Below, piece by piece: positions 6,270 to 40,937 of a stretch of 40,937 bases of DNA; position 1 is the first letter of the stretch, and each line of letters starts with the position of its first letter. The stretch covers positions 1 through 40,937 of the forward strand of contig JAFVIF010000061.1 in NCBI GenBank assembly GCA_017474125.1, given 5' to 3'. The notes below the pieces were generated by a model. That model was not told the DNA's origin. It made no database searches and saw only the letters and a program-made list of their open reading frames with translations. The translations under genes and the position numbers were made by a program. This DNA comes from Clostridia bacterium (GTDB lineage Bacteria > Bacillota > Clostridia > Oscillospirales > Acutalibacteraceae).

Positions 6270-6302
6270 CTTTTCGCCCGTCCCCTTTTCACCCTTTTTG
6301 TA

Positions 6303-6333
6303 AAGAGTATGTCCAAGGCAAAAAAAATAGAAC
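6303..6333 (-). promoter_or_regulatory. Candidate sigma-E promoter of the spoIIIA operon
   Basis: On the minus strand GTTCTATTT (6325-6333) and CATACTCTT (6303-6311) are separated by 13 nt, close to the sigma-E pattern. spoIIIA is known to be sigma-E controlled in Bacillus. The -35-like element lies inside the yebC terminator stem and U-tract. Transcription from here favours the GTG start of spoIIIAA over the upstream ATG. Confidence 0.5.
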
Positions 6334-6352
6334 AAGCGGTGACGCTTGTTCT
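6321..6352 (-). terminator. Intrinsic terminator after yebC
   Basis: Perfect 10-bp stem (6329-6338 with 6343-6352, loop GTGA), followed on the minus strand by ATTTTTTTT. It ends dusB-yebC transcription immediately upstream of the spoIIIA promoter. Confidence 0.88.
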
Positions 6353-6377
6353 ATTCTTAAATTTAACCTTTCAAAAA

Positions 6378-7106
6378 TTAATCTTCCATTTCCCAGTTGT
6401 GCCAGAAGGCCTGAACATCTTCGTTTTCATCCATCATATCAATAAGCTTTTCCATTTTTTCCTTCATGGTGTCATCGGTAAGGGTTGTCATATTCTGGGG
6501 AATATATGCAACCTCGGCAGATACGAAGGAATAGCCCTTTTCTTCAAGAGCGTCACGCACTGCGCCAAGGTCGTTGGGAGCGGTGATAATTTCAAATACG
6601 TCCTCGTCGGCGGTAAAGTCCTCTGCGCCCGCTTCAAGAGCATCCATCATTACATTATCCTCATCAAGGTCTTCAGCCTCAATAACAATTTGACCCTTGC
6701 GGTCAAACATAAAGGATACGCTTCCTGCCTGTCCCAAATTACCGCCGCATTTATCAAAGTAATGACGCATTTCGCCTGCGGTACGGTTACGGTTATCGGT
6801 AAGGGTTTCAACTATGCAGGCAACTCCGCCGGGGCCGTAGCCCTCGTAAATAAGCTCCTCGTAGTTGTTGGCATCGCCCTCGCCTGCCGCCTTTTTAATA
6901 ATACGCTCAATGTTTTCGTTGGGCACGTTAGCGGCCTTTGCCTTGGCAATAACGTCCTTAAGCTTACTGTTCTCGTTAGGATTAGGGCCGCCCTGCTTTA
7001 CTACAACGGCGATTTCACGGCCCATTTTGGTAAAGATTTTTGCCTTAGCGGCATCGGTTTTTTCCTTTTTTCTCTTAATATTGTTCCATTTACTATGTCC
7101 TGACAT
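6378..7106 (-). CDS. yebC: YebC/PmpR family protein (TACO1-like)
   Basis: 242 aa starting at the universal MSGHSKWNNIKRKKEKTDAAKAK motif. The ATG at 7104-7106 was chosen because 15 extra upstream codons are not family-like. The protein has the three-domain, very acidic character of the YebC family (GYGPGGVACIVETLTDNRNRT near residue 85; DLDEDNVMMDALEAGAEDF near 145). The family is described both as DNA-binding transcription regulators and as a ribosome-associated factor easing translation of proline stretches. It follows dusB closely (41 nt) on the same strand. Confidence 0.95.
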   Translation of the reverse strand: MSGHSKWNNIKRKKEKTDAAKAKIFTKMGREIAVVVKQGGPNPNENSKLKDVIAKAKAANVPNENIERIIKKAAGEGDANNYEELIYEGYGPGGVACIVETLTDNRNRTAGEMRHYFDKCGGNLGQAGSVSFMFDRKGQIVIEAEDLDEDNVMMDALEAGAEDFTADEDVFEIITAPNDLGAVRDALEEKGYSFVSAEVAYIPQNMTTLTDDTMKEKMEKLIDMMDENEDVQAFWHNWEMED

Positions 7107-19305: not shown

Positions 19306-20562
19306 ATGAGTGACATTAACCGTGCCGTTAAGGGCACAAACGACGTACTGCCCGAGGAAAGCTACAAATGGCAATACGTAGAAAAGAAAATGCTTGAAAC
19401 AGCTTCCCTTTTCGGCTTTAAGGAAATAAGGGTGCCTGTTTTTGAGCATACCGAGGTTTTCCAGCGAAGCGTTGGCGATACTACCGACGTTGTACAAAAG
19501 GAAATGTACACCTTTGACGATAAGGGCGGCAGAAGTATTACTCTTCGTCCCGAGCTTACCGCAGGTGTTATAAGAAGTGTTATTGAAAACGGTCTATATA
19601 ACCAAAGCCTGCCCCAAAAGGTTTGCTACATTGGTGGCTGTTACCGTTACGAAAAGCCTCAGGCAGGCAGACTCAGAGAATTTCATCAGTTTGGCGTTGA
19701 ATGTATAGGCGCCGCCGCTCCCGCCGCCGATGCCGAGGTTATTTCCCTTGCGCACAGCGTGCTTACAAATATCGGTCTTGATAATTTATCTCTCGAAATC
19801 AACTCCATAGGCTGTCCCACCTGCCGCGCTGAGTATCACAAGGCGTTAAAGGCATACTTTGAAGGCAAAAAGGATCAGCTTTGTGAAACCTGCAAGGAAA
19901 GGCTTGACCGCAACCCCATGCGTATTCTTGACTGTAAATCACCCGTTTGCGGTGATATTGCCAAGGATGCACCCGTTATGATTAATTACCTGTGCAACGA
20001 CTGTGCCGAGCATTTTGAAGCAGTTAAGGCTCAGCTGGACGTAATGGGCATAGGCTACAAGGTAAACCCCACTATCGTTCGCGGACTTGACTACTATACC
20101 AGAACGGTATTTGAGTTTATAAGCGGTGATATAGGCGCGCAGTCTACCGTTTGCGGCGGCGGTCGTTACGACGGACTTATGCAGCAAATGGGCGCTCCCG
20201 CTACCCCCTCCTTAGGCTTTGCAATGGGTATTGAAAGGCTTTTACTTGTGCTTAATAACCTTAATAAGGAAATCGGTGACCAAAAGCCCTGCGATATTTA
20301 TATTGCGCCTATGGGAGAAAAGGCAGGCATTAAGGCCGCCGCCGTATGCTCCGCGCTACGCAAGGAGGGCTTTATCGCCCTTACCGATATTTGCGGCAGA
20401 GGTCTTAAGGCTCAAATGCGCTACGCCAATAAAATCGGCGCTCGCTTCAGCGTTGTGTTGGGTGACGACGAATTGGCCTCGGGAATTATCCGCCTTAAGG
20501 ATATGAAATTAGGCGAAGAAAAAGAAATCAGCATTGACAGCATTGCTCAGTGCTTAAAATAG
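19306..20562 (+). CDS. hisS: Histidyl-tRNA synthetase
   Basis: 418 aa class II synthetase. Motif 1 region near the N-terminus (RAVKGTNDVLPEESYKWQYVE), motif 2 CYRYEKPQAGRLREFHQFGVE, the histidine A motif GLDYYTRTVFEF and motif 3 PSLGFAMGIERLL, then the C-terminal anticodon-binding domain (about residues 325-418, CDIYIAPMGEKAG...). A CxxC..CxxC cluster at about 168-201 (CPTCRAEY, CETCKERL) is typical of many bacterial HisRS. GGAGGAA precedes the ATG. Confidence 0.97.
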   Translation: MSDINRAVKGTNDVLPEESYKWQYVEKKMLETASLFGFKEIRVPVFEHTEVFQRSVGDTTDVVQKEMYTFDDKGGRSITLRPELTAGVIRSVIENGLYNQSLPQKVCYIGGCYRYEKPQAGRLREFHQFGVECIGAAAPAADAEVISLAHSVLTNIGLDNLSLEINSIGCPTCRAEYHKALKAYFEGKKDQLCETCKERLDRNPMRILDCKSPVCGDIAKDAPVMINYLCNDCAEHFEAVKAQLDVMGIGYKVNPTIVRGLDYYTRTVFEFISGDIGAQSTVCGGGRYDGLMQQMGAPATPSLGFAMGIERLLLVLNNLNKEIGDQKPCDIYIAPMGEKAGIKAAAVCSALRKEGFIALTDICGRGLKAQMRYANKIGARFSVVLGDDELASGIIRLKDMKLGEEKEISIDSIAQCLK

Positions 20563-20572
20563 GAGAATTAAA

Positions 20573-22360
20573 ATGGCACTTGACAGAATGGATTCATTGA
20601 AGCGCACTCATTATTGCGGCACGGTTAGACCCGAGGACGAGGGCAAAACCATAGTCGTTTGCGGTTGGGCTCAGCGCCAACGCGACCTCGGCGGTCTTAT
20701 TTTCATTGATTTAAGGGACAGAACAGGTATTATCCAGCTTGCCTTTGACGACGCTACCGAAAAAAGCGTATTTGAAAAGGCCTCTACCGTACGAAGCGAA
20801 TTCGTGCTTATGGCTCAGGGTAAGGTTCGCCGCCGTTCCTCGGTTAATAAGGATATCCCTACGGGCGAAATAGAGGTTGAGGTAACCACCCTTAAAATTT
20901 TAGGCAAGGCAGAAACCCCTCCCTTTGATATTTCCAACGACACCAAGGCCAACGAGGAGCTTCGCCTTAAATACCGTTATCTTGATTTAAGAAGAGAAAA
21001 GCTTCAAAAGAATATTATGACCCGTCACCGCATTGCCAAGGTGACCCGTGATTACTTTGATGAAAACGGCTTTTTGGAAATTGAAACTCCTACCCTTATT
21101 AAATCTACCCCCGAAGGCGCAAGAGACTATCTTGTTCCCTCCCGTATTCATCACGGAAGCTTTTATGCTCTTCCTCAGTCGCCCCAGCTTTATAAACAGC
21201 TTTTAATGCTTTCAGGCTTTGACCGTTACGTTCAGCTTGCCCGTTGCTACCGCGACGAGGACCTTAGAGCTGACCGTCAACCCGAGTTTACCCAAATAGA
21301 TATGGAAATGTCTTTCGTGGAAATGGAGGATATTTTTGCCATTGCCGAAGGCTATATGAAGCGCCTTTTCGGTGAGGTTTTAGGCGTTGAATTAAGCCTT
21401 CCCTTACCCAGAATTAAGTTTACCGACGCTATGGAGCAATACGGCTCCGACAAGCCCGATATCCGCTTTGATATGAAGCTTATTGATTTATCGGATATTG
21501 CAGAAAACTGTGGCTTTTCAGTATTTGCCGACACCGTTAAAAACGGCGGTACCGTAAGGGCCATTTGTGCCAAGGGCGGTGCAAGCGTTTACACAAGAAA
21601 GGAAATTGACAAGCTTACCGAGGAGGCCAAAGGTATCGGCGCCAAGGGTCTTGCCTTTATCCGCTATGCCGAGGACACCCCCACCTGCGCCTTTGCCAAA
21701 TTCCTGAGCGAAGAAGAATTCGCCGCTATTATGGAGCGCACCGACTGTCAGAAGGGCGACGTTGTATTTATTATTGCCGACAAAAAGCGCCTTGCTCTTT
21801 CGGTGCTGGGTAACCTTCGTCTTACCGTTGCAAAGCGCCTTGATATTATTCCCAACACCTATGCTCCCCTGTGGATAACCGAATTCCCCTTCTTTGAGTA
21901 CAACGAGGATACCAATAGCTGGGATGCTATGCACCATCCCTTTACCTCTCCTCTTGACGAGTGTATTCCCTATCTTGAAAGTGACCCCGGTAAGGTTTTC
22001 GCCAAGGCCTACGACCTTGTTATGAACGGCATTGAGCTGTCCAGCGGCTCCATTCGTATTACCGACCCCGTTCTGCAAAACCAAATGTTCAAGGCTTTGG
22101 GACTTACCGACGAGGAGGCTCACGAGAAGTTCGGCTTCCTTACCGACGCCTTCCGCTTCGGCGCTCCTCCCCACGGCGGTCTTGCAATCGGCCTTGACCG
22201 AATTTGTATGCTGCTCACCGAAAGCGATAGCCTCAGAGACGTTGTTGCCTTCCCCAAGGTTAGCAACAGCAGTGAGCTTATGTCGGGCGCACCCGCCGCA
22301 GTTGACCCCGTTCAGCTAACCGACCTTGCAATTGCAATTATAAACGAGGATAAGGAATAA
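20573..22360 (+). CDS. aspS: Aspartyl-tRNA synthetase
   Basis: 595 aa class II synthetase of the bacterial AspRS type: N-terminal OB-fold anticodon domain (about 1-120), motif 1/2 (LEIETPTLIKSTPEGARDYLVP; ARCYRDEDLRADRQPEFTQIDME), bacterial insertion (GAD) domain (about 290-420) and motif 3 GGLAIGLDRICMLL near the C-terminus. Full length. Whether it is AspRS or the non-discriminating form that also charges tRNA-Asn is not decidable here. It starts 10 nt after hisS, an arrangement common in Firmicutes. Confidence 0.97.
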   Translation: MALDRMDSLKRTHYCGTVRPEDEGKTIVVCGWAQRQRDLGGLIFIDLRDRTGIIQLAFDDATEKSVFEKASTVRSEFVLMAQGKVRRRSSVNKDIPTGEIEVEVTTLKILGKAETPPFDISNDTKANEELRLKYRYLDLRREKLQKNIMTRHRIAKVTRDYFDENGFLEIETPTLIKSTPEGARDYLVPSRIHHGSFYALPQSPQLYKQLLMLSGFDRYVQLARCYRDEDLRADRQPEFTQIDMEMSFVEMEDIFAIAEGYMKRLFGEVLGVELSLPLPRIKFTDAMEQYGSDKPDIRFDMKLIDLSDIAENCGFSVFADTVKNGGTVRAICAKGGASVYTRKEIDKLTEEAKGIGAKGLAFIRYAEDTPTCAFAKFLSEEEFAAIMERTDCQKGDVVFIIADKKRLALSVLGNLRLTVAKRLDIIPNTYAPLWITEFPFFEYNEDTNSWDAMHHPFTSPLDECIPYLESDPGKVFAKAYDLVMNGIELSSGSIRITDPVLQNQMFKALGLTDEEAHEKFGFLTDAFRFGAPPHGGLAIGLDRICMLLTESDSLRDVVAFPKVSNSSELMSGAPAAVDPVQLTDLAIAIINEDKE

Positions 22361-22773: not shown

Positions 22774-23205
22774 TTATATGATATCAGCAATATTTATTAC
22801 CTTCTTTTCCCTTTTAGAGGCAAGCGCAGAAAAACGTGCCGCTCCGCCCATACTGCGCGTTACATAGGTAATAACGTATTGCGCTTTTTCTAACATCCAT
22901 TTGTTTCGATAAATTATTGCGAATCTGGGCGGCACATTTTCAATGCCCTGTGGCAATATGGTTTCATCTCTTTCATATATATTTGTCTTGCTCGGGATTT
23001 TTTCAAGCACAACGTAAAAGTTTATATATTCGTACTCTTTTTTAATCTCCTTTAAACAGCTGTAAACAAGCCTATCAAATGCACCCTTATTCCCTACGTA
23101 AAATAATGTAATCCCTTTTTCTGTAATTAACCTTTTTATCTCTGATTTTAAAGTATTTTTTATTTTATCCGGGCAATCTCTGTGTCCAAAAAATGTGCAA
23201 ATCAT
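22774..23205 (-). CDS. SLOG-domain (DUF1273/YpsA-like) protein
   Basis: 143 aa from the ATG at 23203-23205, which has AGGAG 8 nt upstream; an upstream in-frame start would run through the operator. The N-terminus MICTFFGHRDCPDKIK, the FYVGNKGAFDRLVYSCLKEIKKEY block and the C-terminal RSMGGAARFSALASKREKKVINI match the SLOG/DUF1273-like family widespread in Firmicutes. SLOG domains are thought to bind nucleotide-derived ligands; cellular function is unknown. More AT-rich than the housekeeping genes, it is divergent from the XRE gene and its stop codon abuts the right TIR of the repeat element. Confidence 0.75.
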   Translation of the reverse strand: MICTFFGHRDCPDKIKNTLKSEIKRLITEKGITLFYVGNKGAFDRLVYSCLKEIKKEYEYINFYVVLEKIPSKTNIYERDETILPQGIENVPPRFAIIYRNKWMLEKAQYVITYVTRSMGGAARFSALASKREKKVINIADII

Positions 23206-23216
23206 TTTAATCACTC

Positions 23217-23260
23217 CTATATAGGCAATACATCGCCTATATAGTATCACACATTGCCTA
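23217..23260. promoter_or_regulatory. Palindromic operator candidate in the SLOG/XRE divergent region
   Basis: Perfect 10-bp inverted repeat CTATATAGGC (23217-23226) and GCCTATATAG (23235-23244) with an 8-nt spacer, plus a third partial half-site ATTGCCTA (23253-23260). It covers the likely SLOG promoter/leader and touches a -35-like TTGCCT (23254-23259; TATATT at 23279-23284) for the XRE gene. Autoregulation by the XRE protein is the simplest inference. Confidence 0.55.
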
Positions 23261-23317
23261 CTTTTTCCACTGTTTTTTTATATTCTATAGGTAAGAATAT
23301 AAAACGGAGTGAAAATT

Positions 23318-23560
23318 ATGAAAACGGTGGAAGCAGTAAAAAACAGAATATTACAGTTATGTGGAGAACGTGGCATTACTATAAACAAGCTTGCTACACT
23401 TTCTGCGCTACCCCCTTCATCTGTAAAAGCAATCCTTTACGGCAGAAGCCAAAACCCAAAGCTTCTTACTGTTAAAATGCTGTGTGACGGGCTCGGCATT
23501 ACTTTAGCAGATTTTTTCAACACCGAAGAATTTAATTCTCTTGAGCAAGAAATAGAATAA
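23318..23560 (+). CDS. XRE-family HTH regulator
   Basis: 80 aa, essentially only a helix-turn-helix domain (KNRILQLCGERGITINKLATLSALPPSSV; CDGLGITLADFF). The ATG at 23318 has GGAG 9 nt upstream; a GTG at 23309 is too close to that site. It may control the divergent SLOG gene, the phage cassette downstream, or both. A terminator follows directly, so read-through into the cassette would be limited. Confidence 0.85.
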   Translation: MKTVEAVKNRILQLCGERGITINKLATLSALPPSSVKAILYGRSQNPKLLTVKMLCDGLGITLADFFNTEEFNSLEQEIE

Positions 23561-23617: not shown

Positions 23618-23714
23618 GTTATGAACATTAAAAAGCTCCTTTTAAAGGGGTTTTTTATGTTTTTGGGGATAGTTATGCACGTTATGCACAGAGTTATGAA
23701 CAATATTTATGCAC
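23618..23714 (+). repeat. Five iteron-like 9-mers upstream of terS
   Basis: Direct repeats of GTTATG(A/C)AC at 23618-23626, 23672-23680, 23681-23689 (head to tail with the previous), 23693-23701, and a variant TTTATGCAC at 23706-23714. All share one orientation. Location just upstream of the small terminase gene suggests a packaging-initiation (pac/cos-like) site, an operator, or an iteron origin; the sequence cannot separate these. Confidence 0.6.
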
Positions 23715-23790
23715 CAAATGGGTAAAAAAATGTCGGTGAATGTCGCATTTGCTGTTCATAAAATTTAGCCGTAGACAGGAGGGAACAACC

Positions 23791-24045
23791 ATAAAAAACA
23801 GCGATTTAAAGGATGAAATGAACAAGCTCCTTACCCAACGGCTGAGCGCTGAGGAGGCCGAGCTTTTAAGCGATGCAGGCTTTAAGTTCTCCCGACCTAC
23901 CCGTGCAACGGGCATACTCGTTGCACTTTATAAAAAAGCCGCTTCGGGCGATATGACCGCCATTAAAGAGGTTTTGGCTCTGGCCGGCAGGCAGTCGCAG
24001 AATTTAGGAAACGAGGTGACCATTATAGACGATGTCGCAAATTAA
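23791..24045 (+). CDS. Small terminase subunit-like protein (TerS)
   Basis: About 84 aa, charged and helical (NSDLKDEMNKLLTQRLSAEE...ATGILVALYKKAASGDMTAIKEVLALAGRQ). TerS identity rests on size, the KAASGDMTAIKEVL-type helix common in small terminases of Firmicutes phages, and direct overlap with terL (14 nt). Start is uncertain: AGGAGGG (23777-23783) is ideally placed 7 nt before an ATA codon at 23791. The nearest in-frame ATGs are 23740 (upstream of the Shine-Dalgarno sequence) and 23818 (34 nt downstream). I annotate the ATA as the positional start. Confidence 0.6.
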   Translation: MKNSDLKDEMNKLLTQRLSAEEAELLSDAGFKFSRPTRATGILVALYKKAASGDMTAIKEVLALAGRQSQNLGNEVTIIDDVAN

Positions 24046-25318
24046 AGTAGGCGAGCTTATAGGCGGAGGGTACGACCGTTATTGGCGCTGTAAAAAGCGT
24101 TACAGAGTTTTAAAGGGCGGCAAGGGCTCGAAAAAATCCAGCGTTACCGCACTTAACTTTATATACCGACTTATGAAGTACCCCGAAAGCAACCTATTGG
24201 TCATCCGCGCGGTTATGAACACCCACCGCAACTCTACCTTCGCCGTGCTTTCCTGGGCACAGCGGCGACTTGGAGTAGCCGAGCTATGGAGCAACAGTCT
24301 TTCCAATATGGAAATGACCTATTTGCCAACGGGGCAGAAAATAATTTTTCGCGGCACCGACGATGTTTTAAAGCTTGCAGGCCTTACGGTTGACACCGGC
24401 ACCATTAACTTTGTATGGATTGAGGAGGCCTTTGAAATAGGAAGCGAGGCCGATTTTGACAAATTGGACCTTACGGTTCCCCGAGGCGAGGTGAGTAAGG
24501 GTATTTTTAAACAAACAACCCTTACCTTTAACCCTTGGAGCGGCAAGCATTGGCTGAAGAAAAGATTTTTTGACAATCCCGACAGCCAAACCGAAACCTT
24601 TTCCACCAATTATTTATGTAACGAATTTTTGGACAGCACCGATAGGCAGGTTTTTGAGCGTATGAAACAAACCAACGCACGCAAATATGCCGTTGCGGGT
24701 CTTGGAGAATGGGGAATTGCCGAAGGGCTTGTATTTGAAAACTGGTCGGTGCAAAGCAGGGATATTACCAAGGAGGGCGCTAACGATTGGAAGGCATATT
24801 TTGGCCTTGACTACGGCTACGTAAACGACCCCACTGCCTTCATTGCCTTTTACGTTAATAAAAAAACCCGTGAAATTCATATTTTCGATGAGTTTTATAA
24901 AAAGCGTATGCTAAACTCCGAAATTGCCGAGGAAATTAAAAGCCGAGGCTATGCAAAGGAGCGCATCAGAGCCGATTCCGCCGAGCCGAAATCTAACGAG
25001 GATTTACGCAGGCTTGGTATTCATCGCATAACACCTGCCGCTAAAGGGCGGGACAGCGTGCTTAACGGCATAGCTCGAATAAGCGAATACCAAATAACCG
25101 TTGAGCCAAGCTGTGTTGCCACAATAGGCGAGCTTTCGTCTTATATATACGGTGACAAGGTTAACGAGCGAGGCATGAGACTGCCCGTAGACAAGGATAA
25201 TCACCTTTGCGATGCGCTGCGATATGCCTTCGAGGACGTTAAATTCCAAAGCACCTCGGGAGAGCTTCCTGCCGCCTTTAAGGGCAGAGAAATATTATTT
25301 GGGAGATGGATGCAATAG
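24032..25318 (+). CDS. Phage terminase large subunit (PBSX-type)
   Basis: 428 aa. ATPase domain: Walker A GGKGSKKSS (G29-S37), Walker B FVWIEE (E131, E132) and a coupling-motif-like TLTFNPWSGKHW. RNase H-fold nuclease: D260 in FGLDYGYVNDP, D315 in RADSAEP, and D394 in HLCDALRYAFED. All catalytic residues expected of a headful- or cos-packaging motor are present. It would translocate DNA into a procapsid at the portal. The gene is intact and its base composition looks like that of the chromosomal neighbours. Confidence 0.92.
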   Translation: MSQIKVGELIGGGYDRYWRCKKRYRVLKGGKGSKKSSVTALNFIYRLMKYPESNLLVIRAVMNTHRNSTFAVLSWAQRRLGVAELWSNSLSNMEMTYLPTGQKIIFRGTDDVLKLAGLTVDTGTINFVWIEEAFEIGSEADFDKLDLTVPRGEVSKGIFKQTTLTFNPWSGKHWLKKRFFDNPDSQTETFSTNYLCNEFLDSTDRQVFERMKQTNARKYAVAGLGEWGIAEGLVFENWSVQSRDITKEGANDWKAYFGLDYGYVNDPTAFIAFYVNKKTREIHIFDEFYKKRMLNSEIAEEIKSRGYAKERIRADSAEPKSNEDLRRLGIHRITPAAKGRDSVLNGIARISEYQITVEPSCVATIGELSSYIYGDKVNERGMRLPVDKDNHLCDALRYAFEDVKFQSTSGELPAAFKGREILFGRWMQ

Positions 25319-25560
25319 AAATATTTTTAATTATTATAGTTGACCTTTTGGCCTTTTTTATCGGTCTTGCCATTGGCGGACTCATAAATATAAGACAGCA
25401 AAAGGAAAAAAGCAGGTCAGCGCTTAAACGAAACAGCGACTGGCAGGCACTTATGAATTACACACCGTGCGAGCCGACAGAGAAATCTGCCGATTTATAT
25501 AAACAAAACGCAGGAAAGGAGAAGCGTTATGGAAGAAAAAACCGAAATCACACCCGATAA
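25306..25560 (+). CDS. Small single-span membrane protein in phage cassette
   Basis: 84 aa: an N-terminal hydrophobic segment (about residues 4-27, IEIFLIIIVDLLAFFIGLAIGGLI), then a basic tail. It overlaps terL by 13 nt and the next gene by 32 nt, so it is probably translated with them. I recognise no family. A membrane protein between terminase and scaffold genes is unusual. The extreme C-terminus overlapping the scaffold gene (KEKRYGRKNRNHTR) may not be functional. Confidence 0.6.
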   Translation: MDAIEIFLIIIVDLLAFFIGLAIGGLINIRQQKEKSRSALKRNSDWQALMNYTPCEPTEKSADLYKQNAGKEKRYGRKNRNHTR

Positions 25561-26137
25561 GGCTAATAGGGCCACCACACCCACAGGCGAGCCTCTTATT
25601 CCGGTTAAGTTTAACAAGGAGATACGGCAGCTCACCCTTGACGAGGCTTCAGCTCTTTCCCAAAAGGGAATGAAGTACGATGCCGTAAAGGAGCAATGGG
25701 AACGGCTTAAAGCGTTAGCCGGGGAAGAAAAGGTCAGCCCGAAGGAGTTTTTGGACGCACTTGAGAAGAGGAGAACAGAAAAAAGGATAGAAGAGCTCAC
25801 TAAGGAGTGCGGCGGAAACAGGGAAATGGCCGAAAGAATCGTATGCCTTGAAAAGGGACAGGCCGATTTGACCCTAAAGGACAAGGATTTTTGCGAATAC
25901 TTCCCCAATATGCAGGTAACCGATTTGCCCGATGAGGTTTTAATAAGCGCCAAGGAGAATAATTCCGATTTATTAAACGAATATTTACGTTTTATGGCGA
26001 GAAAAAGCATTGAAGCCAAGGCGCAGGAGCGGTTATTAAAGGCCAACGCCAAAAGCACTGTCGGTTCGCAAAAGGACAGCGGTATTAACCGCAGCCCCGA
26101 GGAAGCCGAGTTTGTTCGGGGCATATGGAATAAATAA
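25529..26137 (+). CDS. Scaffold-like phage protein
   Basis: 202 aa, highly charged and predicted mostly helical (EKVSPKEFLDALEKRRTEKRIEELTKECGGNREMAERI), with no Cys-rich or membrane parts. Position immediately before the major capsid gene, together with its composition, suggests an internal scaffolding protein that shapes the procapsid and is then lost. No serine-protease motif is visible, and no separate head protease exists in the cassette. Family recognition is weak, so the role is inferred from context. GGAG upstream of the ATG. Confidence 0.65.
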   Translation: MEEKTEITPDKANRATTPTGEPLIPVKFNKEIRQLTLDEASALSQKGMKYDAVKEQWERLKALAGEEKVSPKEFLDALEKRRTEKRIEELTKECGGNREMAERIVCLEKGQADLTLKDKDFCEYFPNMQVTDLPDEVLISAKENNSDLLNEYLRFMARKSIEAKAQERLLKANAKSTVGSQKDSGINRSPEEAEFVRGIWNK

Positions 26138-26155
26138 AATTTAAGGAGATTTAAA

Positions 26156-27334
26156 ATGGCTATTAACACTTTAGAAGCCGCCGCTTGCTACAGCGAAGAG
26201 CTTGACCGCCTTTTCACCCAGAAAAGTGCCACAGGCTTTTTTGCCGACAATGCTTTCGGCGCGCGCTTTGTAGGCGCAAAAACCGTAATTGTACCCGATA
26301 TTGATTTTCAGGGTCTTGCCGATTATGACCGCGACACAGGCTTTACCCGCGGTGCAATTACCGTATCTAACACCTCTTACACTATGCAGATGGACCGCGC
26401 CCGTTCCCTGCAGATTGACCGCGAGGACCTTGACGAAACAGGCGTAGCTAATCTTGCGGGCAAAATTTTGGGCGAATACGTTCGCACCAAGGTTGTTCCC
26501 GAATGTGATGCTTACTGCCTTTCTAAGCTATCGGGTCTTGCACTTTCACGCGGCAACACCCTTTCGGGCGATACCGACGCACCCTTTGCCACCCTTAACG
26601 AGCTTATTAACAAGGTTCAGAAAAAGGTTGGCTTCGACACCGAGCTCGTGGCATTTATTGACTGCGGCATTTACGCCCGACTTGCCAACAGCACCGAAAT
26701 TTCCAAGCTTATTACCGTTTCCGATTTCAAGCAGGGCGAGGTTAACCTCACGGTTAAAAGTCTTAACGGTGTAGCTCTTATTCCCGTTGTAAGCGAAAGA
26801 ATGAAAACCGCCTACACCTTTAATTCGGGTGCGGCAGGCGGCTTTGTTCCCGCTGAAAACGCAAAAAGCGTATTTATGCTGGTTTGTCCCAAGGACGGCG
26901 CGCATCTTATGAAGAAAACCGAAAAGATGCGTATTTTTGCACCCGACCAGAATCCCGATGCCGATGCCTTTAAGTTCGACTACCGTATTTATTACGATGT
27001 ATTCGTTAAAAAGAGCGGCCTTGACGCTGTTTGGGCTTGGATTGCGCCCGAGGTTAAAATAACACTTCAGCCTCAGGATAAAACCGTAACCGAGGGCAAC
27101 ATAAGCGGTACTCTTTCGGTAACGGCCGAAAGCGAGGATAACGCAGAAATTACCTATCAGTGGTACACCTGTGACCAAAACGGCGGTAATGCCGTAAAGG
27201 TTGCAGGAGAAACAGGCGACAAGCTTAATATTCCCGCTACCCTTACCGAAGGCGAATACTACTTCTTTGCCACCGCTACCGCAGACGGTCTTGCCGAAGT
27301 AAGCTCTTCACTTGCAAAGGTAACCGTAGAATAA
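26156..27334 (+). CDS. Major capsid protein with C-terminal Ig-like domain
   Basis: 392 aa. Residues ~1-297 have the character of an HK97-fold, N4-gp56/P22-type coat protein (INTLEAAACYSEELDRLFTQKS...; TVIVPDIDFQGLADYDRDTGF; QIDREDLDETGVANLAGKILGEYV; KTEKMRIFAPDQNPDADAFKFDYRIYYDVFV). Residues ~298-392 form an Ig-like domain (ITLQPQDKTVTEGNISGTLSV...ITYQWYTC...) likely displayed on the capsid exterior. No N-terminal protease-cleaved arm is obvious. Preceded by AAGGAG and followed by a strong terminator, consistent with high expression. Confidence 0.87.
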   Translation: MAINTLEAAACYSEELDRLFTQKSATGFFADNAFGARFVGAKTVIVPDIDFQGLADYDRDTGFTRGAITVSNTSYTMQMDRARSLQIDREDLDETGVANLAGKILGEYVRTKVVPECDAYCLSKLSGLALSRGNTLSGDTDAPFATLNELINKVQKKVGFDTELVAFIDCGIYARLANSTEISKLITVSDFKQGEVNLTVKSLNGVALIPVVSERMKTAYTFNSGAAGGFVPAENAKSVFMLVCPKDGAHLMKKTEKMRIFAPDQNPDADAFKFDYRIYYDVFVKKSGLDAVWAWIAPEVKITLQPQDKTVTEGNISGTLSVTAESEDNAEITYQWYTCDQNGGNAVKVAGETGDKLNIPATLTEGEYYFFATATADGLAEVSSSLAKVTVE

Positions 27335-27341
27335 TTTCGGT

Positions 27342-27369
27342 GGGGAGAGAGAAATCTCTCCCCTTTTTT
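27342..27369 (+). terminator. Strong terminator between capsid and portal genes
   Basis: Perfect 9-bp GC-rich stem GGGGAGAGA / TCTCTCCCC with a GAAA tetraloop, followed by TTTTTT, 7 nt after the capsid stop. It should keep the capsid message much more abundant than the portal message. Confidence 0.92.
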
Positions 27370-27403
27370 AGGCGGTCGTTTTAAAAATATTAAGGAGGAA
27401 TAT

Positions 27404-28837
27404 ATGAACACACCCTCAGAAATTTACAAAGAATACGAAAAAGCAAGGCAGGAAAAGGCCGGCCTTGGAAAAAACGGCATGTATGAGCAAAGCCTTATTA
27501 ACCGACGTTTTTACCTTGGTGACCAATGGTACGGAGCAAACGTGAGCAACGAACGACCCTTGGTACGCCATAATATTATTCGCCGAATAGGCGAATACAA
27601 AATGGGCGACCTTTTAAGGGAAAGGCTTAACGTCAGCTTTTTTGCAAACGGAATAGGCTGTACGGTTGATGACCAAGCAAAAATTTTAAATGACCGAAAA
27701 AAGCTTAGCGGCGGTGAATTTATTTTTGATAAAAATGCCGATGAGCAGGAATTCCGCCTTTTAACCTCGGCCTTAAGCGATTACCTTAAAATAAGCTTCA
27801 GCGAAAACCGAATTGAAGAAAAGCTGACCGAGGCCCTTAAAAACAGCTTTATTACGGGTACGGGCGTGCTGTACAGCTATTGGGACACTACGGGAGCATT
27901 TGGGCTTGGCGACGTTGCCTGCGAGGTTTTGCCTATTGAAAATCTTTATTTCGGCGATTCTACCTGCGAAACGGTGGAAAAGCAGCCCTATATTATTATC
28001 GTTACACGTCCCGACACCGCCGAGGTTCAGCATATGGCCGAAATTTACGGCGGCGAAGTAAGCAGAATTAAGCCCGATTCCTTAAGTGAAGGCAAAACCA
28101 CCGTTTTTACAAAGCTTTACAAAAAGGGTTATGGCAGTAATGCAACGGTTATGGCGGTATCGGTTACCGAAAAGGCCGTTGTAAGGCCCGAATACGACAC
28201 CCGACTTAACCGTTATCCCGTAAATATTTTTAGTTGGGAAGCCAAGGAAAACTGTATTTACGGCGAAAGCGAGGTCACCCATCTTTTGCCAAATCAAATT
28301 GCCATAAACCGATTACTCTCGGCATCGGTTTGGTCGTCTATGTATATGGGTATGCCCATTATGACGGTAAACGGCGACACCGTCACCGAGGATATTACCA
28401 ACGACCCGGGACAGATTATTAAGGTTTACGGCACCAACGAGGACGTTGCGGGAGCGGTTAAATACGTCGCCCCACCCGATTTTTCCTCGGGCTTTAATTC
28501 GGGGGTGTCCTCCCTTATTCAAAACACCCTTGAAGGCTGTGGCGCAGGTATGACCACCTTGGGAAAGCTAAGCTACAACAACACCGCCGCCATAGAATCC
28601 ATTTCATCGGTTTCGGGTGTATCAGCCTTAAGCCTTAAAACACGTTACCGCTGTTTTTTAAGCGATATAGCCCTTACCTTTTTGTGCTTTTTTATGACCT
28701 ATTACGGTAACAGAAGGCTGCTTATTGAGGACCAAAACGGGCGCTGGTATTTCCCCTTTAACAGTGACCGATACAAGAATCTAAAATTTTCCGCAAGATG
28801 CGAAGTAGTTAAGGAGGATGTAAATGAAAGTAACTGA
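27404..28837 (+). CDS. P22-type phage portal protein
   Basis: 477 aa. The N-terminal region has the portal character (NRRFYLGDQWYGANVSNERPLVRHNIIRRIGEYKMGDLL), then the clip/stem region with ALKNSFITGTGVLYSYWDT and CEVLPIENLYFGDS, and VTHLLPNQIAINRLLSASVWSSMYMGMP. It forms the dodecameric DNA gate at one capsid vertex. It has a strong Shine-Dalgarno sequence (TAAGGAGGAA). Unusually, it follows the capsid gene instead of preceding it. Somewhat short for a P22-like portal (~725 aa), so the C-terminal barrel is absent. Confidence 0.88.
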   Translation: MNTPSEIYKEYEKARQEKAGLGKNGMYEQSLINRRFYLGDQWYGANVSNERPLVRHNIIRRIGEYKMGDLLRERLNVSFFANGIGCTVDDQAKILNDRKKLSGGEFIFDKNADEQEFRLLTSALSDYLKISFSENRIEEKLTEALKNSFITGTGVLYSYWDTTGAFGLGDVACEVLPIENLYFGDSTCETVEKQPYIIIVTRPDTAEVQHMAEIYGGEVSRIKPDSLSEGKTTVFTKLYKKGYGSNATVMAVSVTEKAVVRPEYDTRLNRYPVNIFSWEAKENCIYGESEVTHLLPNQIAINRLLSASVWSSMYMGMPIMTVNGDTVTEDITNDPGQIIKVYGTNEDVAGAVKYVAPPDFSSGFNSGVSSLIQNTLEGCGAGMTTLGKLSYNNTAAIESISSVSGVSALSLKTRYRCFLSDIALTFLCFFMTYYGNRRLLIEDQNGRWYFPFNSDRYKNLKFSARCEVVKEDVNESN

Positions 28838-29156
28838 TTTATACAAAATAGGGTATATAATGTCGGGAATTGACACCTACTGTGATTTTTTATCCGAGGA
28901 CAAGGCTGACGAGCTGTTCTTTATTAACCGAGCCCTTGCCGACCTTAATATAAATCCTATTACCTCTATTACCGACAGCCTTGAATTAAGGTTAAGCACC
29001 GCCGATGCCGTAAGCGCAGGCATTGCCTATTATCTTTCGCTCTACTCAGGCGACAGCGACAGAACGGCCTTTTTGTGTGAGCTTTATAATGCAAAAAGGG
29101 CCTCTGCTTTATCACAAATCACCCGTGTAAAATGCAGTAAGGCTTTCAAGGGGTAG
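28824..29156 (+). CDS. Head-tail connector/adaptor protein
   Basis: 110 aa, helical. The segment VSAGIAYYLSLYSGDSDRTAFLCELYNAKRASA matches the pattern of small head-completion (gp6/connector-like) proteins. It overlaps the portal gene by 14 nt, as expected for a protein docking under the portal ring. Identification rests on this pattern, size and position. Confidence 0.7.
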   Translation: MKVTDLYKIGYIMSGIDTYCDFLSEDKADELFFINRALADLNINPITSITDSLELRLSTADAVSAGIAYYLSLYSGDSDRTAFLCELYNAKRASALSQITRVKCSKAFKG

Positions 29157-29162
29157 ACTAAT

Positions 29163-31241
29163 ATGGTATTTAAAAGTCCTGAATTTACAAAAAACAAAGC
29201 CTACACCCTAAACAGCTTTAGCGGCATTTGTTCGGTAGGTGATAAAAACGCTTTAGGCCAAGACCGCCTTGCAAGCGGCGAAAACGTATGGAATAAAAAC
29301 GGTCTGCTTTCAAATCGCCCCGGTTTTAAATACCTTAAGGACGGTATTATTAATGATTTTTTGGGATTACCCGATTTTGATAAAATTTTCTATGCTGATT
29401 TTCCCATTGAAGAAATGAACGAATACGGAAACCTTTTTGCTCTTGTAAATGAATCGGGACCGTACGGCACTTCAATTCACCTTTTTGTGGCAAATAAATC
29501 GGGCAACGTAAAAAATCTTACCTTTATGGAGCTGATGGGGGCTATGGCCGACACCGTTTATGATATTAAAAATATACTTTTTATTAAGGATGCTCCCGTC
29601 GAAGGCTGCGGTATTTTTTTGCTGATGCCCATTTTAACCTACGGCATTGACGGAGAAAATGAAACGAGGCAGGTTTATTATTACGAATTAAGCAGTGACT
29701 ATTCCAATCTTATAAGAATCTCTCCCCAAAGCTTTTACCGCCCGATTATTATGAAGCACGGCTTTGGAAATGACGCCTCGGCTGAAGTGATAAACAAAAG
29801 AGTAACCACCTATCCCGAGGAGGTAAACCTTTTAGGAGGAAATTTTGAAGCCTGCTTTAATGCCGACAACAGATCTATTAATTTTTCTCTTCCGGTAAAA
29901 ATTGCAAGCGGCGCGGCCGTTACCGTTCACCTTTATACCTCAAGCCGCTCCTACGTTACCTTTGATATATACGGAAACAGTAGTTCGTCAAATCCCGTAA
30001 GTCTACTGGGTAAAAACTACGTTGTAATGGTTTCACGCGATTTGGGACAAATTACCTTTACCGCAGACGGCTTAGTAGAGCCTGCCCCAATGCTTTGCCT
30101 TAACAACGGCATAAGGGTGCTGTCGCAGGTTAACACCGAAAAAGAGGCCTACGAGCTATTGAGCCGACACAGCAGACCCATAAGCTTTGACGGTCGTTTG
30201 TTTTTCCCCGGCGGCGAAAACTGCAATAATTTAATTTATTATTCGGGAAAGGACCTGCCCCTTTATTACTGTCAGAGCCAAAGCATTGCGGTGGGAAACC
30301 CTAATTACGGCGTTACGGCACTTTCCCTTCAAAGTAAATACGTGGTTGCCTTTAAAGAAAGAGAGCTTTACCGCCTTACCATTAACGAAAGCAATAAAGT
30401 AACCCGCGAAGCGATTATATCCAACGACAGTATCACTAAAAAGCCGATGCCCACCTATAAAATTACACGTATTAACGACTGCATAGGCTGTGATATGCCT
30501 ACAACCATAATAAACTGCGGAAACCGCCTTGTATGGTATCACAGCGATGGCGCCGTTTACACCCTTTACGGCAGTAACCTTTATACCGAGGGCAGTGTTT
30601 ACGAGCTATCAAGCGATATTGCACCGCACCTTAAAAATATTGGCTACGAAGACAAAAAACGGGTTTTCGGCGCTGAATTTGATGGCTTTTATCTCCTTGG
30701 CATAGGCAATACGCTTTACCTTATGGACACAAGGGTAGACGGCTTTCGTTACCTTGCAGGTCATAAAGCCGCCAACAAAAAATACAGCGGACTTCCGTGG
30801 TTTATTTGGAAAGCGCCGCTGGGCACGCAATTTGTTTGGGTTATTAATTGCGGCGGCAACGGATATTTTCTTTTGCGAACCGGCAGCGGCTCGGTTTACT
30901 ACCTTGCAGAGCTTTCGGGAGAAACCGATTTAGTTCCAAGCAGGAGCGAAGACTTTGAAGAAATTCTTCCTGAATTTTCCTTTTCCACCCCCATTATCGG
31001 TGATTCCTTAAGCTATTCACAGCGGCTTTCTGTTACCGCCGCCGTAAAAAACGACGTCACCCTTACTATAGAGGACAGTAACGCCGCTCTAAAGGCCTTC
31101 TCATTTAAGGGCGACGGTAAAATGCGCAGCTATACGGTTCCCCTTCAGCATCATATCGGTGGTGTAGGGCTCACGCTCAGTGGCGCAGGCAATTTTATTT
31201 TAAAGGCCTTAACCTACGAGGAAAACCGTATAAAACCATGA
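29163..31241 (+). CDS. Putative short-tail hub/nozzle protein
   Basis: 692 aa, beta-rich, without membrane segments. The N-terminus contains NVWNKNGLLSNRPGFKYL, a 'RPGF'-type start seen in podovirus tail-stabilisation proteins, and the middle has repeated blades (QSKYVVAFKERELYRLTI; GNRLVWYHSDGAVYTLYG; FDGFYLLGIGNTLYLMDTR) like a beta-propeller. P22 gp10 lies at this place in the gene order (after connector), so a tail-hub role is the best guess. No fibre or lysin domain is visible. Family assignment is inferred. Confidence 0.55.
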   Translation: MVFKSPEFTKNKAYTLNSFSGICSVGDKNALGQDRLASGENVWNKNGLLSNRPGFKYLKDGIINDFLGLPDFDKIFYADFPIEEMNEYGNLFALVNESGPYGTSIHLFVANKSGNVKNLTFMELMGAMADTVYDIKNILFIKDAPVEGCGIFLLMPILTYGIDGENETRQVYYYELSSDYSNLIRISPQSFYRPIIMKHGFGNDASAEVINKRVTTYPEEVNLLGGNFEACFNADNRSINFSLPVKIASGAAVTVHLYTSSRSYVTFDIYGNSSSSNPVSLLGKNYVVMVSRDLGQITFTADGLVEPAPMLCLNNGIRVLSQVNTEKEAYELLSRHSRPISFDGRLFFPGGENCNNLIYYSGKDLPLYYCQSQSIAVGNPNYGVTALSLQSKYVVAFKERELYRLTINESNKVTREAIISNDSITKKPMPTYKITRINDCIGCDMPTTIINCGNRLVWYHSDGAVYTLYGSNLYTEGSVYELSSDIAPHLKNIGYEDKKRVFGAEFDGFYLLGIGNTLYLMDTRVDGFRYLAGHKAANKKYSGLPWFIWKAPLGTQFVWVINCGGNGYFLLRTGSGSVYYLAELSGETDLVPSRSEDFEEILPEFSFSTPIIGDSLSYSQRLSVTAAVKNDVTLTIEDSNAALKAFSFKGDGKMRSYTVPLQHHIGGVGLTLSGAGNFILKALTYEENRIKP

Positions 31242-31301
31242 ATTTACTGCCGAAATATAATCCACCAACGGCAGAATTATTAAAAATAAGGGAGAAAAAA
31301 T

Positions 31302-31565
31302 ATGACTTTTAAAATAACTAAGGGCACTATTGTGCGTACAATTATGATAGGAATCGTTATAATTAATATGATTCTTAAAAAATTCGGCATTGACGTAATT
31401 AACACCGACGAAAGCACCGTTGCTTCTGTTGTGGAGGCGCTAATCGAAATAGGCTCGATTGCGGCGGCCTGGTGGTACAATAACAGCTTTTCCGAAGCCG
31501 CAAAAAAGGCAGACAGATTTTTTATGGCTGTTAAGGATTACGAAAAAAACCAAAAAACTCAGTAG
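31302..31565 (+). CDS. SPP1-type phage holin
   Basis: 87 aa. Two hydrophobic helices (about 9-26, VRTIMIGIVIINMILKKFG; and about 41-60, VVEALIEIGSIAAAWWYNN) and a charged C-terminus with NNSFSEAAKKADRFF, the hallmark of the SPP1 holin family. Holins permeabilise the membrane to release endolysin, but no endolysin gene is seen. It is the last gene of the cassette; manA follows with its own promoter. Confidence 0.88.
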   Translation: MTFKITKGTIVRTIMIGIVIINMILKKFGIDVINTDESTVASVVEALIEIGSIAAAWWYNNSFSEAAKKADRFFMAVKDYEKNQKTQ

Positions 31566-31631: not shown

Positions 31632-32576
31632 ATGAGCGATATTTTACGTTTATCGCCTGCCTTTAAGGATTATCTGTGGGGCGGCAGGATTATAAAGGAA
31701 AAATTCGGCATTTTGGATATGGACAAGGTTGCCGAGGCGTGGGTGCTTTCTACCCATAAGGACGGTCAAAGTGTTGTTGTAAACGGCGCTCAAAAGGGCA
31801 AAAGCCTTTCCGAAGCAGTAGAAGCCTTAGGTGAAAAGGCGCTTGGCGAAAAGGCCGCCGCCTTTGAAATGTTTCCTCAGATGCTTAAAATAATTGATGC
31901 CGAGCAAAGCCTTTCCATTCAGGTTCACCCAAGCGATGAATACGCCCTTGAAAACGAAGGCCAATACGGTAAAACCGAAATGTGGTACATACTTGACGCC
32001 AAGGAGGGCGCAGGCATTTACTACGGTGTAAAAAAGGAATGCACCAAGGAGCAGCTTAGAAAGGCAATTGATGAAAACAAAATAGAGGACGTGCTTCGCT
32101 TTGTTCCCTGCAAAAAGGGAGAAAGCTACTTTATTCCGTCGGGCACCATTCACGCCATTGGCGCAGGGCTTCTTATTGCTGAAATTCAGCAAAACTCCAA
32201 CGTAACCTACCGCGTTTACGACTTTGGCAGAGTGGGTGCCGACGGCAAGCCGAGAGAGCTACATACCGAAAAAGCCCTTTTGGTGTCTAACCTTACGCCT
32301 ATGAAGGATGAAGCTAAAAAGAGTGCGGAAATTATAAAGGACGGCACAAAAACTCTCCTTTCCACCTGTGAATACTTTGAAGCGGTTAAGCTTGATATTA
32401 ACGGGGAATATACCGTCAAACCGAATAACAGCTTTGTTTGCGTATTTATACTTGAAGGAAACGGTGAAATCGACGGTGAAGGGTTCCAAAAATTCGACAC
32501 CTTTTTCATTCCTGCCGATTATGGCGAAACCCTTTTAAGGGGTAATTTTGAGGCTATGATAACCTACTGCCCGTAA
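31632..32576 (+). CDS. manA: Mannose-6-phosphate isomerase, class I
   Basis: 314 aa cupin-type metalloenzyme interconverting mannose 6-phosphate and fructose 6-phosphate. Motifs: KDYLWGG near the N-terminus, the metal-binding SIQVHPSDEYA (QVHP) and KTEMWYIL, and the second metal ligand region SGTIHAIGAGLLIAEIQQNS. Short single-domain form typical of Firmicutes. Transcribed from its own promoter, ended by a clear terminator at 32615. Chromosomal flank of the phage cassette on the right. Confidence 0.93.
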   Translation: MSDILRLSPAFKDYLWGGRIIKEKFGILDMDKVAEAWVLSTHKDGQSVVVNGAQKGKSLSEAVEALGEKALGEKAAAFEMFPQMLKIIDAEQSLSIQVHPSDEYALENEGQYGKTEMWYILDAKEGAGIYYGVKKECTKEQLRKAIDENKIEDVLRFVPCKKGESYFIPSGTIHAIGAGLLIAEIQQNSNVTYRVYDFGRVGADGKPRELHTEKALLVSNLTPMKDEAKKSAEIIKDGTKTLLSTCEYFEAVKLDINGEYTVKPNNSFVCVFILEGNGEIDGEGFQKFDTFFIPADYGETLLRGNFEAMITYCP

Positions 32577-32719: not shown

Positions 32720-33007
32720 GTGAAAATAATTGAATTAGATTTAACCGGATGCAAATATATAGCCGAAATTCACGAAAGAATACACAATGCTTTTAATTTT
32801 CCGGAATGGTACGGAAGAAATTGGAGCGCTTTTTGGGATTTTCTTTGGAGTGAATGCGATGCAGATAAGGTTATTATCAAAGGCGAACGTACTCTACCGA
32901 AAGAATTTAATGAATCGATTGTTAAAATGCATGAAATATTAGAAAGGAACGCTCACTTTCGTAAAGAAAATAGTTTGAATTCTTTTTCTTTTGAAATTGT
33001 AAATTAA
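32720..33007 (+). CDS. Barstar-family ribonuclease inhibitor, orphan
   Basis: 95 aa, full barstar domain: N-terminal strand KIIELDLTG, the characteristic FNFPEWYGRNWSAFWDFLW and the C-terminal FSFEIVN strand. Barstar binds and blocks barnase-type RNases. GTG start at 32720 with AAAGGA 9 nt upstream; it overlaps an out-of-frame ATG (ATGTGA). No barnase or toxin gene is nearby, so it is an orphan immunity gene. It is visibly more AT-rich than manA or the reductase gene, and it sits between 30-bp direct repeats. Confidence 0.9.
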   Translation: MKIIELDLTGCKYIAEIHERIHNAFNFPEWYGRNWSAFWDFLWSECDADKVIIKGERTLPKEFNESIVKMHEILERNAHFRKENSLNSFSFEIVN

Positions 33008-40817: not shown

Positions 40818-40937
40818 TTAGCCGCCGACTACCTTGTCAAGCAGTCTTGCGGAAGTACGCTTCGCTTCCCTTGTAGCGTGAGCATACACGTTCATTGTGG
40901 TACTGACATCGGCGTGTCCTAAAAGCTCCTGCACATC
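40818..40937 (-). CDS. Tyrosine recombinase/integrase, C-terminal fragment (cut by window)
   Basis: Only the last 39 codons are in the window: DVQELLGHADVSTTMNVYAH followed by ATREAKRTSARLLDKVVGG. LLGHA carries the box II His and NVYAH the catalytic Tyr of phage-type tyrosine recombinases. The gene continues beyond 40937 on the minus strand. Such genes normally sit at the end of a prophage or conjugative element, whose body would then be to the right; the attachment site should lie within 40641-40817 or close by. Confidence 0.92.
   Translation of the reverse strand, partial: DVQELLGHADVSTTMNVYAHATREAKRTSARLLDKVVGG

What the first reader, a model, noticed from the sequence alone, without database searches (positions are those of the whole stretch)
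23618..31565. Compact head-and-packaging cassette without a recognisable phage life cycle
About 8 kb encode only TerS, TerL (all catalytic residues present), a membrane protein, scaffold, capsid, portal, connector, tail-hub-like protein and holin. No integrase, replication, tail shaft, fibre, protease or endolysin is visible; aspS-side and manA-side host genes close in, and the base composition blends with the chromosome. All reading frames are open. It could be a domesticated particle-forming system, a gene-transfer agent or a capsid-forming satellite relative that borrows other parts.
Basis: partly seen in the sequence, partly recalled or inferred. Interest (0 to 1): 0.85.

Follow-up and report, generated by a model that had tools for sequence, protein, structure and literature searches.

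The report
Core operon of a dispersed phage-derived particle
A set of phage head and packaging genes that some gut bacteria have kept and passed down like their own genes appears to be switched on together with its missing tail-fibre and lysis genes elsewhere in the genome by a shared DNA signal, so the cells probably build virus-like particles that carry bacterial DNA.

Summary
In detail: 23740-31565 encodes TerS, TerL, a membrane protein, scaffold, capsid, portal, connector, a podophage-type tail protein and a holin, without a phage life cycle. It does not look like a decaying prophage. I mapped the same cassette in 44 genomes of five genera; the 41 that could be placed form one clade apart from related phage-type loci. 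The cassette tree shares 24 of 30 splits with rpoB (33 genomes; label shuffles at most 3), and dN/dS is low.

A 17-bp direct repeat with a -10 box (window 23731-23747) precedes TerS. It was found in 29 of 34 tested cassette genomes of three genera, 22 of them with further copies, and in none of five tested cassette-less genomes of one of these genera. Further copies precede collagen-like fibres, amidases or lysozymes, MuF/DUF6883 proteins, and some replication genes including dnaA. In the window's genome one precedes a fibre-amidase operon.

This fits a podovirus-like, multi-locus gene transfer agent, comparable to the published Faecalibacterium FpGTA but with a different inferred gene order and a readable regulon. 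Particles and DNA transfer are untested; a toxin-delivering particle is an alternative.

The parts
20573..22360 (+). aspS (name from the sequence), upstream host neighbour; hisS at 19306-20562
   Evidence: same order hisS-aspS-cassette-manA in G002
22774..23250 (-). 158-aa ORF between aspS and the cassette; no homologue near the G001/G002 cassettes; probably not part of the system
   Evidence: (YpsA 0.0037, below cut-off)
23309..23560 (+). 83-aa Cro/C1-type HTH protein; no homologue near the G001/G002 cassettes; membership unproven
   Evidence: (HTH_26 4.4e-9)
23618..23701 (+). four GTTATG[AC]AC repeats upstream of TerS (similar repeats in G001, G002)
   Evidence: 7 in window, 0.46 expected
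23731..23747 (+). shared promoter element TGTCGGTGAATGTCGCA (two TGTCG repeats one helical turn apart)
   Evidence: 1 hit, 0.07 expected at up to 3 mismatches
23759..23764 (+). -10-like box TAAAAT, 11 bp after the element
23740..24045 (+). TerS; conserved core of about 85 aa, no HTH found; probable start is ATA at 23791 behind AGGAGGG (inference)
24032..25318 (+). TerL, 428 aa, ATPase and nuclease domains
25306..25560 (+). 84-aa protein with a hydrophobic N-terminus (membrane protein by eye); homologues in G001, G002
25529..26137 (+). scaffold, 202 aa (by position and homologues)
26156..27334 (+). major capsid protein, 392 aa, with Ig-like C-terminus
27404..28837 (+). portal, 477 aa
28824..29156 (+). 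head-tail connector, 110 aa (by position and homologues)
29163..31241 (+). 692-aa short-tail (hub or nozzle) protein
31302..31565 (+). holin, 87 aa; a Cwp19-like lipoprotein gene lies between tail protein and holin in G001 and G002 but not here
31632..32576 (+). manA (name from the sequence), downstream host neighbour in 3 of 3 genomes of the genus

Best explanation
The cassette is the core structural operon of a host-domesticated, podovirus-like gene transfer agent. Shown by sequence: it descends from one phage ancestor and has diverged together with its hosts over five genera; its genes have low dN/dS; its TerS shows no DNA-binding domain; and it shares a promoter element with separate operons for tail fibre, lysis, MuF-like and some replication proteins. 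Inferred: an activator binding the repeat turns the loci on together in a few cells. Heads assemble and are filled with unselected chromosomal DNA by headful packaging, and a short tail with fibres is added. Holins, Amidase_3 or GH25 enzymes and, in many species, a Cwp19-like lipoprotein lyse the producer.
For: One clade of 41 cassettes (support 100/99), sister to six phage-type loci (100/98). Against rpoB, 33 of the 44 genomes: r = 0.845, 0 of 9,999 permutations as high, 24 of 30 splits shared, shuffles at most 3. dN/dS 0-0.087 for eight genes of the closest pair. 30 of 44 cassettes have all seven core genes at 75% or more of median length. Ig-tailed capsid in 48 of 61 genomes of genus g90; none full length outside family f1 in a draw of 394 genomes of the order. 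Promoter element: 82 matches in 46 genomes, reversed control 3. Of 52 extra sites in cassette genomes 50 were examined: 12 before fibre genes, 11 before lysis-type genes, 7 before MuF/DUF6883 genes, 5 before VapE, DnaD-like or dnaA. A -10-like box follows 36 of 47, background 5.6%. Integrase over the cut-off within 10 kb in 2 of 28 cassette genomes. TerS without detected HTH; HTH-like TerS in 3 of the 6 sister loci.
Against: No particle, packaged DNA or transfer has been shown. The exact rpoB topology is rejected for the cassette at AU p = 0.016 (SH 0.53), although shuffled trees are over 5,000 log units worse against 42. The locus differs between subclades. 13 of 61 g90 genomes lack a full capsid gene. 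G100 and G368 have internal deletions and G074 an inversion: decay or assembly error. Short TerS also occurs at two phage-type loci (G019, G075); of the six sister loci one (G012) shows no evident HTH and for two no TerS was seen. The element is at chance level (4-7 mismatches) upstream of TerS in 11 of 45 loci, and 12 of 34 tested genomes have no further copy. The regulator is unknown.
Confidence: 0.82

Rival explanations
1. A domesticated particle used mainly as a weapon: MuF-type nuclease domains travel with the head and harm non-kin, while barstar-type partners protect the makers; DNA transfer is secondary or absent (PBSX-like use).
For: MuF or DUF6883 genes under the element at 7 sites in 6 genomes, a barstar gene beside two of them (G210, G351), a PBECR4 nuclease at another site; barstar in the window at 32720-33007.
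Against: Seen in 6 of 34 tested genomes and not at the two sites of the window's genome; a complete TerL and portal point to DNA packaging; toxin activity is untested.
Confidence: 0.12
2. A defective prophage slowly decaying at this locus.
For: No integrase, replication or lysogeny genes in the cassette; real losses exist (G352 truncated TerL next to a truncated lipoprotein gene, G356 and G358 with only the lipoprotein left).
Against: Same gene set in 44 genomes, low dN/dS, host-congruent tree, shared regulon.
Confidence: 0.03
3. A capsid-forming satellite that borrows tails from helper phages.
For: Compact head-and-packaging set.
Against: No integrase in the cassette, host-like inheritance, own tail protein, fibre and lysis operons in the same genome.
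Confidence: 0.03

Closest known systems
FpGTA of Faecalibacterium (PMC12946183; outline with abstract, sections 9, 10 and 26 read, passages from others)
   Same: Podovirus-like; about 10 genes with TerS lacking a DNA-binding domain, TerL, portal, scaffold, capsid; second operon with fibre, holin, endolysin; in 12 of 12 Faecalibacterium genomes examined there; same bacterial order (recalled)
   Different: Gene order there seems TerL-portal-X-capsid (from the accession numbers of portal and capsid, inference); here TerL-scaffold-capsid-portal. Homology could not be tested because no genome known to be Faecalibacterium could be searched. No shared promoter element is mentioned in the parts read; section 26 says no DNA replication genes were identified.
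RcGTA-type agents (Rhodogtaviriformidae; PMC9662315 and PMC11841831, passages read)
   Same: Core cluster plus accessory loci, vertical inheritance, TerS without DNA-binding domain
   Different: Long-tailed type (recalled), unrelated hosts, different regulators
Bartonella GTA with run-off replication (PMC2697382, search listing and start of abstract only)
   Same: Replication functions linked to a GTA
   Different: Here VapE, DnaD-like and dnaA sites occur in few genomes; over-replication is untested
Bacillus Pagevirus podophages
   Same: Tail protein similar over about 300 residues
   Different: Complete phages of about 40 kb

Membership tests
Gene transfer agent | Core structural cluster plus accessory genes at other loci | tested here: met
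   linkage rests on the shared element, expression untested
Gene transfer agent | Vertical inheritance with the host | tested here: met
   AU test against exact identity of the trees
Gene transfer agent | TerS without DNA-binding domain | tested here: met
   by sequence; no structure obtained; two phage-type loci share the short form
Gene transfer agent | No integrase or replication genes with the structural cluster | tested here: met
   integrase over the cut-off within 10 kb in 2 of 28 (G283, five ORFs away; G348, 0.7 kb, judged a host recombinase by its length, inference); a sub-cut-off fragment in the window at 40869-40934
Gene transfer agent | Particles that carry random host DNA and deliver it | not testable with these tools
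   needs virome sequencing or culture
FpGTA lineage | Homology and same gene order as FpGTA I | tested here: inconclusive
   order differs by inference from accession numbers; no genome known to be Faecalibacterium could be searched
Capsid-forming satellite (cf-PICI) | Integrase together with the head genes (recalled) | tested here: not met
Complete or decaying prophage | Lysogeny and replication genes, or broken genes | tested here: not met
   two of 44 do have internal deletions
Complete or decaying prophage | att sites and an empty site | not tested
   no att search was made; only losses were seen

The most novel reading that the evidence does not exclude
One regulator, through a single 17-bp element, joins phage-derived head, fibre, lysis, nuclease-toxin with barstar immunity and replication functions (VapE, DnaD-like, dnaA itself) scattered over the chromosome. 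The cell would over-replicate its DNA, pack it and release particles that carry both DNA and a toxin, so that only immune kin profit from the gene transfer.
Probability: 0.2. Interest if true: 0.96.

Novelty: new variant of a known kind. Interest (0 to 1): 0.86.

Why it matters
Gene transfer agents are hard to tell from prophage remnants, partly because their genes are scattered over several loci (PMC11841831, passages read). Here a short DNA element points to the scattered parts, so much of the part list of a Gram-positive, podovirus-like agent can be read from the genomes of uncultured gut bacteria and tested directly in virome data. Its presence in about four fifths of the sampled species of one large genus (48 of 61) would make it a major route of gene exchange, if the particles work.

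Tried and rejected
The TerS job was never accepted.

Spo0A as the regulator: the repeat resembles tandem 0A boxes (recalled). Spo0A_C is over its cut-off in 31 of 32 cassette genomes of the five genera searched (G150 has a sub-cut-off fragment), but also in the five cassette-less g90 genomes, so the test does not discriminate.

Three extra element copies lie inside recF codons and lack a -10 box; set aside as coincidence. Ten of 50 sites were kept as 'other'.

Genera g74 (G193, G269) and g79 (G080) also have an Ig-tailed capsid but fall outside the main clade and are not among the 44. Rows dropped: G100, G368 and G343 (short portal) from the tree; 11 of 44 from the rpoB comparison (9 not searched for rpoB, G241 without a match, G372 without TerL on its cassette contig). 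rpoB of G255 and G275 was first read in a wrong frame and corrected. IQ-TREE codon runs gave no omega; pairwise NG86 was used, with dS above 1 in many pairs and undefined in five.

A scan of IMG/VR with the window capsid alone found no relative; an alignment-based scan did.

Faecalibacterium homology: g26 looked like a candidate, but its loci resemble ordinary phage regions; not pursued.

Full report
What is there. The window (contig C54 of a 2.0-Mb, 86%-complete genome in 79 contigs, G000) has, between aspS and manA, nine co-directional phage-type genes with all frames open: TerS, TerL, a small membrane protein, scaffold, capsid with an Ig-like tail, portal, connector, a 692-aa tail protein and a holin. 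The 692-aa protein resembles a structural protein of Bacillus Pagevirus phages (24.5% over residues 219-522, 4e-11), which are short-tailed (recalled), so the particle is probably podovirus-like and needs no tail shaft.

Recurrence. All three genomes held of the genus carry the cassette before manA; in G002 (contig of the same length as SVQC01000005.1, MAG Oscillospiraceae bacterium SIG607) the order hisS-aspS-cassette-manA is the same. In a draw of 300 genomes of the family, 94 had a capsid match; 17 of these cover the Ig tail at least in part (to residue 357 or beyond), the rest are shorter phage-type capsids or matches to the Ig domain alone. In genus g90, 55 of 61 genomes matched and 48 had the full Ig-tailed capsid; one of these 48, G370, is prophage-like by tree. 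I mapped 33 g90 loci and 11 in g1, g99, g149 and g73, 44 in all: 30 with all seven core genes at 75% or more of median length, 14 partial, 4 of those at a contig edge. In a draw of 394 genomes of the order no full-length Ig-tailed capsid was found outside family f1. In IMG/VR an alignment-based scan returned 20 relatives; three contigs of 4.7-5.9 kb had the full-length form (66-68% identity), and one of them (L223) has an HTH-like TerS and may be a phage.

Vertical inheritance. Capsid plus portal put 41 cassettes in one clade (100/99) whose sister is a clade of six phage-type loci (100/98). TerL, capsid and portal together against rpoB for 33 genomes of five genera: correlation of path lengths 0.845 (0 of 9,999 permutations reached it), 0.876 for the 23 of g90, and 24 of 30 splits shared where label shuffles share 0.25 on average and 3 at most. 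The exact rpoB topology is nevertheless rejected by the AU test (p = 0.016; SH 0.53), with a loss of 42 log units against 5,000-6,400 for five shuffled trees. Neighbours are conserved within subclades: a gene of one family (DUF711 by Pfam in G091) beside the cassette in 14 genomes, 13 of them on the TerS side and two of them genomes that lost the cassette; manA in 3 of 3 of g1; other host genes in other subclades. Between subclades the place differs. Losses are visible: G352 has a truncated TerL next to a truncated lipoprotein gene, G356 and G358 keep only the lipoprotein gene.

Selection. For the closest pair (G346, G355) dN/dS is 0 to 0.087 in eight genes with dS 0.14-0.70. In the other eight pairs TerL and capsid lie at 0.067-0.18; TerS, scaffold, connector and tail protein reach up to 0.39, but dS often exceeds 1 and is undefined in five comparisons. 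One value of 0.47 comes from a 63-residue fragment.

Packaging. The conserved part of cassette TerS is about 85 aa and shows no HTH by family search or by eye. Among the six sister loci TerS is 160 aa with weak, below-cut-off HTH-type Pfam hits in G370, HTH-like by eye in G006 and IMG_L224, not evidently so in G012, and not seen in G312 and G323. A more distant relative has a Terminase_2 TerS (L213). Two other phage-type loci (G019, G075) have short TerS too. [quoted passage not shown]

Lysis. In 32 of 44 cassettes a GHL10 lipoprotein follows the tail protein; a lipobox pattern was found in 31 of 32. The G001 protein matches Cwp19 in the PDB (4.7e-45), a lytic transglycosylase of stationary-phase autolysis in C. 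difficile (PMC6016235, abstract). It is missing from the window cassette, and no match over the family cut-off was found elsewhere in the window's incomplete genome.

The shared element. Upstream of TerS lies TGTCGGTGAATGTCGCA, two TGTCG repeats one helical turn apart, in most cases with a -10-like box about 11 bp on; in the window at 23731-23747. Upstream of TerL/TerS in 45 loci (two of them of g74) the best match is exact in 14, has at most 3 mismatches in 34 and 4-7 in 11; shuffles average about 7. TGTCGGTGAATGTCS with at most one mismatch gave 82 matches in 46 genomes; the reversed control gave 3. It occurs in 29 of 34 tested cassette genomes of g1, g90 and g99 (1-7 matches each, TerS promoter included; 22 have a further copy), in none of five tested cassette-less or prophage-only g90 genomes, once with one mismatch in 2 of 4 further genomes without the cassette, and in none of one genome each of g73, g149 and g74. 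By my count of the list 28 matches are TerS promoters and 52 lie elsewhere in cassette genomes; two of these at contig ends were not fetched. The 50 examined (families) precede: tail-fibre genes (12), lysis-type genes (11, two of them only a holin-like membrane protein), MuF/DUF6883 genes (7; two with barstar beside them), VapE (1), DnaD-like (1), dnaA (3, one of them 1.1 kb away), DUF6291 (2); 3 lie inside recF; 10 are other (protease-like, PBECR4 nuclease, DNA invertase, two TraG-like, three without evident link, two at contig ends). Many fibre, lysis and MuF labels rest on BLAST to a few family-searched members. A -10-like box with at most one mismatch follows 36 of 47 (recF sites left out) against 5.6% of 10,600 random places and 0 of 3 recF sites.

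The window's own second operon. At G000:C39:2649 the element (one mismatch) is followed by a 222-aa collagen-like tail fibre, a 351-aa protein, a 76-aa protein of phrog_1863 and a 253-aa Amidase_3. In G001 relatives of the first two follow the element (51% and 57%, up to a contig end).

Integrases. PF00589 was sought in 28 cassette genomes (26 of the 44 and two of g74) and two others. Over the cut-off, a match lies within 10 kb of the cassette in G283 (five ORFs away) and G348 (0.7 kb; a 340-aa type of a length seen in many of these genomes, judged host-type by inference). In the window a sub-cut-off fragment lies at 40869-40934, at the contig end. No att search was made.

Mechanism. Shown: gene content, co-divergence, selection, shared element. 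Inferred: a common activator, headful packaging of unselected host DNA, lysis by holin with amidase or lysozyme and the lipoprotein, delivery by fibre-bearing short-tailed particles. Replication genes under the element in a few genomes suggest extra DNA synthesis; this is speculation.

Comparison with what is known. FpGTA (PMC12946183; abstract and sections 9, 10, 26 read) is the nearest published system: podovirus-like, about 40-nm heads with 8.4-8.9 kb of host DNA, a structural operon and a second fibre-holin-endolysin operon. Its capsid and portal accession numbers suggest another gene order, and kinship could not be tested. In the paper searches made, seen as listings apart from that paper, I saw no report of this cassette or of a GTA promoter element in these bacteria; the library holds open-licence PMC papers only. 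I therefore file it as a new variant of a known kind.

Noticed in passing
window 32720-33007: A barstar-family gene (1e-13) lies just behind manA; in G210 and G351 barstar genes sit beside MuF genes under the shared element, so this may be an orphan immunity gene.
   Followed up: partly
window 23618-23701: GTTATG[AC]AC repeats resembling DnaA boxes (recalled consensus) upstream of TerS, with similar ones in G001 and G002.
   Followed up: partly
window 23791-23793: TerS of G000 and G001 may start with ATA behind a good ribosome-binding site where G002 has ATG.
   Followed up: partly
L324, L340, L319 (upstream of dnaA): The shared promoter element lies upstream of dnaA in three genomes of two genera.
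   Followed up: partly
L344, L348: A one-mismatch copy of the element precedes a 122-aa gene and a TraG/VirD4-type coupling protein in G355 and G346.
   Followed up: partly
L269, L270, L271: Another compact cassette, TerL, a portal-sized gene, capsid and tail-like genes, in genus g182 of a different family (f26), in the order that FpGTA accession numbers suggest.
   Followed up: partly
L092, L093: Genus g74 has a separate Ig-tailed cassette with a different TerL and an NlpC/P60-SH3 protein at a conserved locus, perhaps a second domestication.
   Followed up: partly
L090 12189-12738: In G074 the end of the portal and the connector are inverted: assembly error or real inversion.
   Followed up: no
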